DNA of 64,000 nt, from positions 1 through 64,000 of the forward strand of contig JAJZVX010000002.1 in NCBI GenBank assembly GCA_021846985.1. Direction: 5' to 3'. Below the pieces are notes generated by a model. The model was not told where the DNA came from. It did no database searches and saw nothing but the letters and a program-made list of their open reading frames with translations. Below, piece by piece: positions 56,729 to 61,370 of the stretch; the stretch's first letter is position 1, and every line of letters starts with the position of its first letter. A program made the translations under genes and the position numbers. Source of the stretch: Acidobacteriota bacterium. Lineage in GTDB: Bacteria > Acidobacteriota > Terriglobia > Terriglobales > Acidobacteriaceae.

Positions 56729-57487
56729 CTACTGGGGCCCCGGCGCGGGATTGCCGGCGGGAACAGCGCTTTGCACATTCGCCAGGACGGGTTCCTTCAA
56801 AGCCTTGCGCGCATCGCGCGCATGCTTTCCGTCGGGATCATAGAGGAGCTGTTTCTCAAAATGCGCGCGCGCGTTGGCATACTGCCCCAGATGATATTCG
56901 GCTTCGGCAAGTCCCCAATACACGTCTGGATTTTCCGGATCGAGCACCAGCGCGGACTCGAAGCGCGACAGCGCTCCCTTCCAGTCGCCGGTGTCTAGAT
57001 AGTAGCTGCCCACACGGATGTTGTGGGCGGCCACTTCCTGCTGCGTCTTTACCTTTTCAGGCCGCCCGCGCTTTTTCTTCTTCTCGGGCTCGCTGGTATC
57101 CAGTGCGGAGGCCGGCAGAGCGTTGTCAATCTCGCTCTGGCTCGAACTCCAGCCCTCGCCCTGGCTGGAACTGCTGGCAGGAAGGGCATCGTCCGGGCTG
57201 CGAACCGGATCGTAGTCCGCCACTGGCACGGCCGCCCTCCAATAGGCAGAGCCCGCATCCGATCCGCCGGGGTTCCCCTGCAGATCGGAGCTGCGCGTAG
57301 GCAGCACGGGAATCGCGTTTGTGTCTTCAGGAAACGGGTTGGCGCCGGAGGGCTGCGGAACGCCGGGCTTGTTCGTTTGCCCCGCCGGCGAAGTGGCCGG
57401 ACTGCCGTCTGAGCTTTGCGCGGCCAGGGACAAAGGCGCGGCCGCCAGACAAGCCAGAAGCGGCGCAATGCAGAATAAACGGGTCAT
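56729..57487 (-). CDS. Exported TPR-repeat protein
   Basis: A 252-residue protein with a signal peptide (FCIAPLLACLAAAPLSLAA), a long low-complexity Pro/Ser/Gly linker up to about residue 130, a lysine-rich stretch (EPEKKKKRGRPEKVK), and a C-terminal TPR pair (VGSYYLDTGDWKGALSRFESAL, DVYWGLAEAEYHLGQYANARAHFEKQLL). The ACLAAAP segment is not a perfect lipobox. It probably acts in the periplasm as a protein-interaction scaffold. Divergent from the SET gene. Confidence 0.82.
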   Translation of the reverse strand: MTRLFCIAPLLACLAAAPLSLAAQSSDGSPATSPAGQTNKPGVPQPSGANPFPEDTNAIPVLPTRSSDLQGNPGGSDAGSAYWRAAVPVADYDPVRSPDDALPASSSSQGEGWSSSQSEIDNALPASALDTSEPEKKKKRGRPEKVKTQQEVAAHNIRVGSYYLDTGDWKGALSRFESALVLDPENPDVYWGLAEAEYHLGQYANARAHFEKQLLYDPDGKHARDARKALKEPVLANVQSAVPAGNPAPGPQ

Positions 57488-57607
57488 ACTCTCTCGATCT
57501 GTCCTTCCACGGCCCTTTCAATGGTACGATGCGAGTCAAGCGGCGGCACAAGCCCGCCCGCATCGTTTCCATATTAGACTCCCGGAGAGAAGGCCTCGCA
57601 TACCTGC

Positions 57608-58078
57608 ATGGGACTCATCATTCGTTCTTCCGCCATTCATGCCGCCGGCTGTTACACCACGAGCCCCATCCGGAAGGGCGCGCGCGTCATCGAATATACC
57701 GGGCGCCGCCTCAGCAAGGCAGAGGCCGATCAGGCCTGCGAGGAGTCTCCCATTACCTATTTATTTGGACTGGGTGATGGCTCGAAGGTGATCGACGGGC
57801 ACTCGATGGCCATGTTCATCAATCACAGTTGCGACGCCAATTGCGAAACCAGCGAGGAGAACGGCCGCGTCTGGATCAGGGCGATCCGGAATATCGCCGC
57901 GGGCGAGGAAATTACCTACGATTACTGCCTCTACGACGGAGGCGGCGACGAGGCCCGGTGCAATTGCGGCGCCGGCAACTGCCGCGGAACCATGTACTCG
58001 CCCGAAGAGATGCGCAAGCGCCAGGCGGCCGCCCGCAGAGCTGCCCAGCCAGCGGGCAGCAAGAAGGCGCAGGCATAG
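57608..58078 (+). CDS. SET-domain protein lysine methyltransferase
   Basis: A 156-residue stand-alone SET domain with a post-SET segment. Core motifs: GCYTTSPIRKGARVIEYTG, the pseudoknot motif FINHSCDANC (72-75 is NHSC) and EEITYDY with the catalytic Tyr (Y104-Y106). After it comes CNCGAGNCRG, a CxCx4C post-SET cysteine cluster (C118, C120, C125) that with C75 would bind zinc as in eukaryotic H3K-type methyltransferases. The C-terminal tail is basic, Ala/Arg/Lys-rich (RKRQAAARRAAQPAGSKKAQA). It uses S-adenosylmethionine; the protein substrate is unknown. There is no signal peptide. Close bacterial SET proteins occur mostly in chlamydiae and scattered environmental bacteria. Confidence 0.93.
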   Translation: MGLIIRSSAIHAAGCYTTSPIRKGARVIEYTGRRLSKAEADQACEESPITYLFGLGDGSKVIDGHSMAMFINHSCDANCETSEENGRVWIRAIRNIAAGEEITYDYCLYDGGGDEARCNCGAGNCRGTMYSPEEMRKRQAAARRAAQPAGSKKAQA

Positions 58079-58371
58079 CTGGCGGCAAATGCCGGTTGTG
58101 AAGGGGCGCGCCTTGCCTCGTGCCGGAATGTCCGTAAAATGAGCCGGGCTTCAGTTCCCCTGGGGGAAGCATCATCGGAGCTTCCCTGTCCGCTCTGCTG
58201 CCCGGCCCTGGGCTTCGCGCCGTCACTTCTTCTGCCGCAAACAAGAGTCACATCGTCCCGCCGGAGAATCCGGAATTGGCGCCCTGTGTTAGGCGCCCCC
58301 GAGGAGTATCCTTTGAAGCGGCAAGCGATGGCCGCCGCTTCAGACAGGCCATCTCCAGAGAGGTAATGTCC
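58079..58371. other. Leader region upstream of hutU
   Basis: About 290 bases. GGCGCC-CTGTGTTA-GGCGCC (58278-58297) is a hairpin or operator-type inverted repeat 75 bases before the hutU start. The hairpin GCTTC-AGTT-CCCC-TG-GGGG-GAAGC lies just after the SET gene, without a T-run. No TGTA-N2-TACA site was seen here. Confidence 0.45.
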
Positions 58372-60063
58372 ATGGCAACAACCGCACCGGTGATTCGCGC
58401 TCCGCGGGGAACGCAGTTGCGCTGCAAGGGTTGGCAGCAGGAGGCGGCGCTGCGCTGCCTGATGAACAATCTCGACCCGGAGAACGCGGAGCGGCCGCAG
58501 GATCTGGTGGTGTACGGCGGGATGGGCAAAGCGGCGCGGAACTGGGAGTGCTATCACGCCATTGTGCGCGAACTGGAACGGCTGGAGATGGACCAGACGC
58601 TGCTGGTGCAGAGCGGCAAGCCGGTAGCGGTCTTCCCCACCCACGAAGGCGCGCCGCGCGTGATTATCGCCAATTCGAACCTGGTGGGGAAGTGGGCCAC
58701 ATGGGAGCACTTTCACGAGCTGGACCGCAAGGGCCTGATCATGTTCGGGCAGATGACGGCGGGAAGCTGGATCTACATCGGGACGCAGGGAATTTTGCAG
58801 GGAACCTTCCAGACCTTTGCGGCGCTGGCGGAAAAGCACTTTGGCGGCAGCCTGAAGGGCAAGCTGGTGGTGACCGGCGGCGTGGGCGGCATGGGCGGCG
58901 CGCAGCCGCTGAGCGTTACCCTGAACGGCGGCGTGGTGCTGGCGGTGGACGTGGACCGTTCGCGAATCGAGCGGCGCGTGGCCACGCGCTACTGCGACGT
59001 CTTGAGCGAGGATCTGGACGAGGCGCTGGCCCTGTGCGAGGCGGCGCGCAAGGAGGGCCGGGCGCTTTCTGTGGGCCTGGTCGGCAACTGCGGCGACGTG
59101 CTGCCGGAGATTGTGCGGCGGGGCGTGCCGGTGGACGTCGTCACCGACCAGACCAGCGCCCACGATCCGCTGAACGGGTATATCCCGCGGATGTCTCTGC
59201 TGCCGGAGTCGGCACGGCGGGAAAGACGCGATCCGCTGGCAGCCGCGCTCGAACTGCGCAAGCGCGATCCGGAAGAGTATGTGCGGCAATCGATGGCTAC
59301 CATGGTGGAGCACGTCAACGCCATGCTGGCGCTGCAACGGGCCGGCGCCGTGGCCTTCGACTACGGAAACAATATCCGGCGCTTCGCCTTTGATGCCGGG
59401 TGCGCGGATGCCTTCCTGATTCCGGGCTTTGTGCCCGAATACATCCGCCCGCTCTTCTGCACGGGGCAGGGGCCCTTCCGCTGGGTGGCGCTGAGCGGCG
59501 ACCCGAAAGACATTGACCGCACAGACGAGCTGGCGCTGGAGCTGTTTCCAGACAATGAGATTCTGACCCGCTGGCTCAAGCTGGCGCGGGGCCGGTTCGC
59601 GTTCCAGGGATTGCCGGCGCGGATCTGCTGGCTGGGGTACGGCGAGCGGGCGCGCATGGGCGAGGCCATCAATGACCTGGTGAAGAAGGGCGAGATCTCC
59701 TCGCCCATCGCCATGGGACGCGATCACCTGGATACCGGTTCGGTGGCCAGCCCCTACCGCGAGACGGAAAAGATGCTGGACGGCTCGGACGCCGTGGCCG
59801 ACTGGCCGCTGCTCAACTTCGCGCTCAACGCCGTGAGCGGGGCCACCTGGGTCAGCTTCCACCACGGCGGCGGCGTGGGCATGGGCTACAGCCTGCATGC
59901 CGGGCAGGTGACGGTGGCGGATGGAACCAGGCTGGCGGCGGAGAAGATTGGCCGCGTGCTGAATAATGATCCCGGCCTGGGCGTGGTGCGGCATGCGGAT
60001 GCCGGCTATGAGCTGGCCAGGAAGACGGCGAAGGAGAAGGGAATTCGGACGCCGATGGGGTAG
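58372..60063 (+). CDS. hutU: Urocanate hydratase
   Basis: Second step of histidine degradation, converting urocanate to 4-imidazolone-5-propionate with tightly bound NAD+. The 563-residue protein starts at ATG 58372, eight bases after AGAGAGG ([13 protein letters not shown]); an ATG at 58366 is too close to that site. Family motifs are [45 protein letters not shown] (NAD-binding), [39 protein letters not shown] and [13 protein letters not shown]. hutI follows after 62 bases. Confidence 0.97.
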
Positions 60064-60125
60064 AAGCAGGGAACAAGGGAATGAGAGACCTGAGGTCCAT
60101 TCTTCTTCGTTGGGATTGACGCGCA

Positions 60126-61370
60126 ATGAGTACGGCTGTGGTGAACATTGGGGAGTTGGTCACGCTCGCGGGGCCGGCGCGGCCGCGTGTGGGCGCCGAA
60201 TTGCGCGCACTGAGTCTGGTGCGAAATGCGGCGCTGCTGGTGCAGGATGGGCGGGTTCGGGCGGCGGGGCCCTGGGCCGAGGTAAAGGCCAGCGTTCCGC
60301 GCCATGCGGAGCTGATCGACGCGCAGGGCTGCTGTGTGACGCCGGGATTTGTGGATGCGCACACGCACCTGGTGTTTGCCGGGAACCGGGCGGCGGAGTT
60401 TGAGCAGCGGCTGGCAGGGGCGGCCTACCAGGAGATTGCCGCGGCGGGCGGCGGCATTCTGAGCACCGTGAAGGCGACGCGCGCGGCGAGCGAGGAGGAG
60501 CTGCTGAAGACGGCGCGGCGGCATCGCGACTGGATGGCGCGCGGCGGCGCCACGACCATCGAGGCGAAAAGCGGCTATGGGCTCGACCACGAAACAGAAC
60601 TGAAAATGCTGCGCGTAATCCGGCGGCTGGGCGAGGAGGGCCAAGCGCGCATGGTGCCCACGCTGCTGGCCGCGCATACCGTTCCGCCGGAGTTTGCTGA
60701 CCGGCGCGGGGAGTATGTGCGGTGGGTGGCCGAAGAGCTGATTCCCGAGGTGGCGCGGGAAAGGCTGGCGCGCTATTGCGATGCGTTTTGCGACGAGCAT
60801 GCGTTCACTCCCGAAGAGGCGCGGACGGTGCTTGTGGCGGCGCGGCGGCATGGACTCAAGCTGCGGGTACACGCCGAGCAGTTCCGGCCGGGAACGGGCG
60901 CGGCGCTGGCCGCCGAACTGGGCGCGGCCACGGCCGATCATCTGGAGGCGGCTGACGAGCCGGCGTTGCGGGCATTGTGCGCGGCAGGCGTGCAGCCTGT
61001 CCTTTTGCCCGGCTCTGTCTTTGCCCTCCGCCGTACGCAGTACCCGGCCGCGCGCAAGATGGTGGAGATGGGGTTGGGGATCGTGCTGGCGACGGACTTC
61101 AATCCGGGGTCGTCCCCTGTGCCGTCGATGCCGTTTGCCATGTCTCTGGCCTGTTTGCAGATGGGGCTGCTGCCGGCGGAAGCGCTCACGGCCGCCACGC
61201 TCAATGCCGCCTGGAGCCTGGGACTGGGCGCGGAGGCGGGATCGCTGGAACCAGGCAAACAGGCCGATTTCCTCATCCACGAGTTTGAGGATTACCGCGA
61301 GATTGCGTACTTTGTAGGAGCGCCGGTGCGCCCACGGGTCTTTATCGCCGGACGGGAAGTCGCGGCGTGA
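60126..61370 (+). CDS. hutI: Imidazolonepropionase
   Basis: Third step of histidine degradation: hydrolyses imidazolone propionate to N-formimino-L-glutamate. The 414-residue amidohydrolase has metal-site motifs DAHTHLVFAGNRAAEF near the N-terminus, ATTIEAKSGYGLDHETELKM, KLRVHAEQFRPG, ATADHLEAAD and LATDFNPGSSPVPSMPF. ATG at 60126 follows hutU by 62 bases, and its stop (GTGA) touches a possible upstream start of the following gene. Its product is the substrate of FtcD encoded at 48.4 kb. Confidence 0.97.
   Translation: MSTAVVNIGELVTLAGPARPRVGAELRALSLVRNAALLVQDGRVRAAGPWAEVKASVPRHAELIDAQGCCVTPGFVDAHTHLVFAGNRAAEFEQRLAGAAYQEIAAAGGGILSTVKATRAASEEELLKTARRHRDWMARGGATTIEAKSGYGLDHETELKMLRVIRRLGEEGQARMVPTLLAAHTVPPEFADRRGEYVRWVAEELIPEVARERLARYCDAFCDEHAFTPEEARTVLVAARRHGLKLRVHAEQFRPGTGAALAAELGAATADHLEAADEPALRALCAAGVQPVLLPGSVFALRRTQYPAARKMVEMGLGIVLATDFNPGSSPVPSMPFAMSLACLQMGLLPAEALTAATLNAAWSLGLGAEAGSLEPGKQADFLIHEFEDYREIAYFVGAPVRPRVFIAGREVAA

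What the first reader, a model, noticed from the sequence alone, without database searches (positions are those of the whole stretch)
57608..58078. Bacterial SET methyltransferase with a eukaryote-like post-SET zinc cluster
Seen: a compact 156-residue SET domain with NHSC, EEITYDY and a CxCx4C post-SET motif, plus a Lys/Arg/Ala-rich tail. Known: post-SET Cys with the NHSC Cys bind zinc in eukaryotic histone methyltransferases. Inferred: it methylates a lysine on a bacterial protein, perhaps a nucleoid or ribosomal protein, and could itself bind nucleic acid through the tail. The neighbour is an exported TPR protein, so context does not reveal the target.
Basis: partly seen in the sequence, partly recalled or inferred. 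Interest (0 to 1): 0.75.

Follow-up and report, generated by a model that had tools for sequence, protein, structure and literature searches.

The report
Acidobacterial SET-domain lysine methyltransferase
This is a real, well-conserved bacterial enzyme of the kind that puts methyl groups on protein lysines in animals and fungi; its zinc-binding end, which looked eukaryotic, proves to be normal for bacterial relatives, so it is a new member of a known group whose natural target is still unknown.

Summary
Window 57608-58078 (+) is a 156-aa SET protein (Pfam SET 3.4e-20) with NHSC, EEITYDY, a CxCx4C post-SET motif and a basic tail. It is conserved: SET matches occur in 43 of 48 sampled same-family genomes, and 72 of 80 relatives keep the divergent TPR neighbour. 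Thirteen columns are invariant across 60 bacterial SET proteins; they include the four presumed zinc ligands (C75, C118, C120, C125), the AdoMet-site N72/H73 and the catalytic Y106. An AlphaFold model (pLDDT 92) matches MLL1/Set1-type SET domains best. The emphasis on "eukaryote-like" does not hold: 44 of 46 other bacterial SET hits carry a CxCx2-4C cluster, and the clade (support 100/99) does not nest with the two eukaryotic sequences used. The basic tail is real: median 41% Lys+Arg in 85 of 90 members, though only 7 of 25 residues here. Most likely it is an active cytoplasmic protein-lysine methyltransferase, probably mono- or dimethylating, held near nucleic acid by its tail; activity, zinc and substrate are unproven. 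The TPR neighbour is not an evident partner, because the SET gene is missing beside an intact TPR locus in four genomes. New member of a known kind.

The parts
57608..58078 (+). SET-domain protein gene, 156 aa, ATG start, TAG stop
   Evidence: start codon shared by all 80 loci with a covered start
57638..57658 (+). motif I HAAGCYT (residues 11-17), AdoMet-binding loop; G14 invariant in 60 sequences, GCY in 86 of 90 family members
   Evidence: role from established SET structures
57821..57832 (+). NHSC (residues 72-75): N72/H73 AdoMet site, C75 presumed first zinc ligand
   Evidence: invariant N, H, C in 60 bacterial SETs
57905..57925 (+). EEITYDY (residues 100-106): Y104 at the F/Y switch, Y106 catalytic tyrosine
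   Evidence: Y106 invariant in 60; Y104 is Tyr in 89 of 90 family members
57959..57982 (+). post-SET CNCGAGNC (C118, C120, C125), presumed zinc ligands with C75
   Evidence: all three invariant in 60 bacterial SETs; CxCx4C in 90 of 90 family members
58001..58075 (+). basic Lys/Arg/Ala-rich C-terminal tail (residues 132-156); residues 132-146 predicted helix, the end of lower confidence
   Evidence: composition; model
57488..57607 (.). 120-bp region between the divergently transcribed TPR and SET genes; no sigma-70-like site found there by the simple scan
56729..57487 (-). conserved divergent neighbour, exported TPR protein (context only; not shown to act with SET)
   Evidence: 72 of 80 relatives; SET absent beside the intact TPR locus in four genomes

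Best explanation
It is a stand-alone, cytoplasmic, AdoMet-dependent protein-lysine methyltransferase. The SET core binds AdoMet through the G14 loop and N72/H73; a target lysine enters the channel from the opposite face and is methylated with Y106 as the catalytic tyrosine. C75 with C118, C120 and C125 holds a zinc ion that folds the post-SET segment over the active site and completes the lysine channel and AdoMet pocket, as in MLL/Set1, NSD and SETD2 enzymes. Tyr at the F/Y switch (Y104) predicts mono- or dimethylation. The basic C-terminal helix and tail probably hold the enzyme near DNA or RNA, so the likeliest targets are basic nucleic-acid-associated proteins (HU or ribosomal proteins), possibly also its own tail. 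Shown: gene, conservation, fold match, invariant residues, tail composition. Inferred: zinc, catalysis, methylation state, nucleic-acid tethering, substrate.
For: Pfam SET 3.4e-20. The profile of the family finds yeast Set1 (2.5e-25) and MLL1 (1.4e-24) first in the PDB. Model pLDDT 91.8; best Foldseek match MLL1 with AdoHcy, E=3.9e-12, TM 0.70, 3.0 A over 142 columns; MLL1 with bound H3K4 peptide TM 0.73, 2.5 A. The 13 invariant columns of 60 bacterial SETs include the four Cys, N72, H73, Y106 and G14. dN/dS about 0.2. Near-universal and nearly always single-copy in the family. Tail K+R median 41%; C-terminal 30 residues 37% K+R against 3-20% for neighbouring proteins in the same loci. Precedents: cpnSET methylates chlamydial Hc1 and NUE automethylates (PMC10117894), Go1-SET methylates archaeal MC1-alpha (PMC3980110).
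Against: No direct evidence of zinc, activity or substrate. No gene neighbour names a target. No Hc1 or histone-fold protein in this genome. Five of 90 family members have tails under 12 residues, so the tail is not essential to every copy. The gene is dispensable: absent at an intact locus in four genomes. Motif I has one Gly (AAG) where many SETs have GxG, although yeast Set1 (NWG) is the same.
Confidence: 0.62

Rival explanations
1. It methylates a small metabolite rather than a protein, as the bacterial SET enzyme BurB does when it S-methylates free methionine in DMSP synthesis.
For: BurB is a bacterial SET protein of similar size (172 aa) and also appears in the PDB search (E 5.7e-6); its crystal structures and activity are published (PMC12542666).
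Against: The sequence is far closer to peptide-methylating SETs (61 bits to Set1 against 29 to BurB), no biosynthetic gene cluster surrounds it, and a basic tail is not expected for a metabolite enzyme. BurB binds methionine mostly through main chain, so residues alone cannot exclude it.
Confidence: 0.12
2. It is an exported effector that methylates histones of protists or fungi, like NUE, RomA and related nucleomodulins.
For: The best structural matches are histone H3K4 methyltransferases, and the characterised bacterial SETs listed in the reviews are mostly secreted (PMC10117894).
Against: No VirB4 and no type III secretin over its cut-off in the genome; no signal peptide apparent at MGLIIRSSAI; near-universal presence in a soil family argues for an endogenous role.
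Confidence: 0.06
3. It forms a functional pair with the divergent TPR protein (or the prepilin peptidase/MazG locus), methylating a protein of that locus.
For: TPR gene adjacent in 72 of 80 relatives, prepilin peptidase in 55.
Against: In four genomes (G013, G034, G024, G445) TPR, prepilin peptidase and MazG stay together while SET is missing; the TPR protein looks exported while SET looks cytoplasmic. Shared order is expected from vertical inheritance.
Confidence: 0.08
4. It is a catalytically inactive SET-like scaffold or reader protein.
For: Inactive SET proteins exist (e.g. SET-24 in worms, abstract of PMC12886896).
Against: AdoMet-site N72/H73, catalytic Y106 and all four presumed zinc ligands are invariant over 60 sequences.
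Confidence: 0.08

Closest known systems
Eukaryotic KMT2/COMPASS SET domains (yeast Set1, MLL1-4)
   Same: SET core, NHxC plus CxCx4C post-SET, Tyr at the F/Y switch; best sequence and fold matches
   Different: About 33% identity, no accessory domains or COMPASS partners, only a few residues before the first strand, an added basic tail; not a clade with them
Bacterial 'SET domain-containing protein-lysine N-methyltransferase' genes on Burkholderiales and Xanthomonas replicons
   Same: Stand-alone SET with post-SET cluster, about 40% identity
   Different: Different gene neighbours; in the tree they group with other Acidobacteriota SETs, not inside this clade
cpnSET / NUE (chlamydial SETs)
   Same: Bacterial SETs; cpnSET methylates the nucleoid protein Hc1, NUE automethylates (PMC10117894)
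   Different: Effectors of intracellular pathogens; here no Hc1 in the genome and no sign of type III or IV export machinery. Sequences not fetched
Go1-SET of Methanosarcina mazei
   Same: Prokaryotic SET with an endogenous chromosomal-protein substrate in vitro, MC1-alpha (PMC3980110)
   Different: Archaeal; MC1 was not searched for here
BurB of Burkholderia thailandensis
   Same: Small bacterial SET protein, solved structure (PMC12542666)
   Different: Methylates free methionine; weak sequence match, 29 bits

Membership tests
SET domain superfamily (PF00856) | Profile match over the curated cut-off | tested here: met
   72.9 bits against 22.4, profile positions 3-104 of 105
SET domain superfamily (PF00856) | SET fold | tested here: met
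   Predicted model pLDDT 91.8, Foldseek probability 1.00 to MLL1, ASH1L, NSD and SETD2 SET domains
SET domain superfamily (PF00856) | Conserved NHxC and catalytic tyrosine motifs | tested here: met
   N72, H73, C75, Y106 invariant in 60 sequences
SET enzymes with post-SET zinc cluster | NHxC Cys plus CxCx4C | tested here: met
   C75, C118, C120, C125 invariant; CxCx4C in 90 of 90 family members
SET enzymes with post-SET zinc cluster | Bound zinc | not testable with these tools
   No coordinates or metal assay available
Protein-lysine methyltransferases | AdoMet-dependent lysine methylation | not testable with these tools
   Needs purified protein
Eukaryotic KMT2 (Set1/MLL) family | Common descent with KMT2 to the exclusion of other bacterial SETs | tested here: not met
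   Two eukaryotic rows form their own branch (97/93) and this clade is separate (100/99); deep branching is open and only two eukaryotic sequences were used
BurB-type methionine S-methyltransferases | Methylation of free methionine | not testable with these tools
   BurB contacts methionine by main chain, so no residue signature to check
Secreted SET nucleomodulins | Export by a type III or IV system | tested here: not met
   No VirB4; no type III secretin over cut-off; other export routes not tested

The most novel reading that the evidence does not exclude
The Acidobacteriaceae carry a near-core endogenous lysine-methylation system acting on their own nucleoid or translation machinery, in which a zinc-stabilised SET enzyme is tethered to nucleic acid by an H1-like basic tail and methylates a basic DNA- or RNA-binding protein and possibly its own tail: a counterpart of chromatin methylation in free-living bacteria.
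Probability: 0.25. Interest if true: 0.75.

Novelty: new member of a known kind. Interest (0 to 1): 0.38.

Why it matters
Bacterial SET proteins have mostly been studied as weapons aimed at host histones. Here is one that is single-copy, near-universal in a large free-living soil family, under selection against amino-acid change and stably placed, so it very probably does something for the bacterium itself. Cultured members (Acidipila, Silvibacterium, Terracidiphilus, Occallatibacter) make the question of what a SET enzyme does inside a bacterium directly testable, and natural losses of the gene offer a comparison. That the post-SET cluster is general in the bacterial SETs examined also weakens any use of it as a sign of eukaryotic origin.

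Tried and rejected
Phage or mobile origin: no match in phage records nor in viral contigs by sequence; only more distant viral SET folds. Functional link with neighbours: rejected as unsupported. Hut genes as context: hutU was found next to SET only in the window itself, not in the 80 relatives. Histone or Hc1 substrate: none found. The HU at L165 has no lysine-rich tail; the other two HU genes were not read. The first AlphaFold model (29 rows) was mediocre, pLDDT 78, and was replaced by the 57-row one. Literature: no paper found on an acidobacterial SET protein.

Full report
What is there. Window 57608-58078 on the + strand is an intact 156-codon ORF. Pfam gives one match, SET, 3.4e-20 over residues 14-106, and it is the only Pfam SET match in the 3.79-Mb genome.

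It is a conserved gene. A scan of public genomes kept 80 relatives at up to 87% identity (best segment), with titles naming Acidobacteria, Acidobacteriaceae or their genera. In an even draw of 396 genomes of the phylum, 43 of 48 from the same family (window's genome included) have a SET match, against 84 of about 348 elsewhere (counted from the rows). All 80 loci with a covered start begin with ATG. dN/dS is about 0.2 in the median and mostly 0.02-0.2 in the closest pairs. Of 80 relatives 72 keep the divergent TPR neighbour, 55 the prepilin peptidase and 43 the MazG homologue, and some contigs are too short to show them.

Does the neighbourhood tell the function? Probably not. In G013, G034, G024 and G445 the TPR, prepilin peptidase and MazG genes are together, with about 1.5 kb held on the far side of TPR, and no SET there; the whole-genome searches found no SET in these genomes either (for G013, G024, G034; for G445). 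So the gene is separable and dispensable.

Active-site and zinc residues. Thirteen columns are invariant in 60 bacterial SETs ranging down to 31% identity: S8, G14, Y30, G32, D63, N72, H73, C75, E101, Y106, C118, C120, C125 (the same set in 57 rows). These include exactly the four cysteines that bind zinc in eukaryotic post-SET enzymes (established knowledge of MLL1, NSD and SETD2 structures), the AdoMet-site Asn-His and the catalytic Tyr. Within the family CxCx4C is present in 90 of 90, and the switch residue is Tyr in 89 of 90. Tyr at the switch predicts low methylation states; that is a rule from eukaryotic enzymes, not a test.

Fold. A model from 57 sequences has mean pLDDT 91.8 and pTM 0.82. 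Its best PDB matches are MLL1 (E 3.9e-12, TM 0.70, 3.0 A) and the other MLL, ASH1L, NSD and SETD2 SET domains. By sequence profile the best are yeast Set1 and MLL1.

Is the post-SET feature unusual in bacteria? No. Of 46 SET hits outside the family (43 from Acidobacteriota genomes, second copies included, and 3 from proteobacterial plasmid records), 44 have CxCx2-4C (my pattern for the NH motif missed NHAC variants, so only the Cys cluster is counted). Proteobacterial plasmid homologues align through the cluster at about 40% identity. The tree gives this family as one clade (100/99) and yeast Set1 plus MLL1 as another (97/93); deeper order is open. A review already reports SET genes in more than 500 bacterial genomes, free-living ones included, and argues against their being the result of transfer from a eukaryotic host (PMC3980110).

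The tail. In 85 of 90 family members a tail of 12 or more residues follows, K+R median 41%, with Ala 17% overall; the C-terminal 30 residues of neighbouring proteins in the same loci have medians of 3-20% K+R against 37% for SET. Length and sequence vary (2-103 residues) while composition stays, as in H1-type tails. In the window copy it is short and weaker, 7 of 25. Residues 132-146 are modelled as a helix. Nucleic-acid tethering or self-methylation is inference.

Substrate. Three HU-family genes are in the genome; no Hc1 and no histone-fold protein. Export looks unlikely: no VirB4 and only sub-threshold secretin matches, as many control genomes also give. BurB shows that a bacterial SET can act on free methionine (PMC12542666), so a small-molecule role is kept as a rival, though BurB scores far lower than Set1 or MLL1.

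Verdict. Observation confirmed; the interpretation as a probable zinc-containing lysine methyltransferase is well supported up to, but not including, activity; the claim of a remarkable eukaryote-like trait is not. It is a new member of a known kind, an uncharacterised Acidobacteriaceae SET family, of moderate interest because it is near-core in free-living bacteria and has no known substrate.

Noticed in passing
L156 (G403:C1:556283-560585), L156:1938-3182, - strand: A 415-aa ORF joins an N-terminal FRG domain (2.2e-21) to a C-terminal SET domain (9.1e-10) in a same-family genome that also has the ordinary SET gene. I do not know this fusion to be described; possibly a defence-type architecture.
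   Followed up: partly
L168, L169, L171, L172: SET gene missing beside an otherwise intact TPR/prepilin peptidase/MazG locus: useful natural deletions.
   Followed up: yes
58276-61370 (window): Genes that look like urocanate hydratase and imidazolonepropionase lie directly downstream of SET here; hutU was not found beside SET in any of the 80 relatives, so the junction seems particular to this lineage.
   Followed up: partly
L155 (G001:C10:83227-87607): A second, distant SET protein (32% identity, CxCx4C present) in a same-genus genome.
   Followed up: no
L104 (G020:C126:8360-8794) and L107 (G023:C498): One copy whose match holds a TAG, and one split into two frames around an ambiguous base; possible decay or assembly error.
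   Followed up: no
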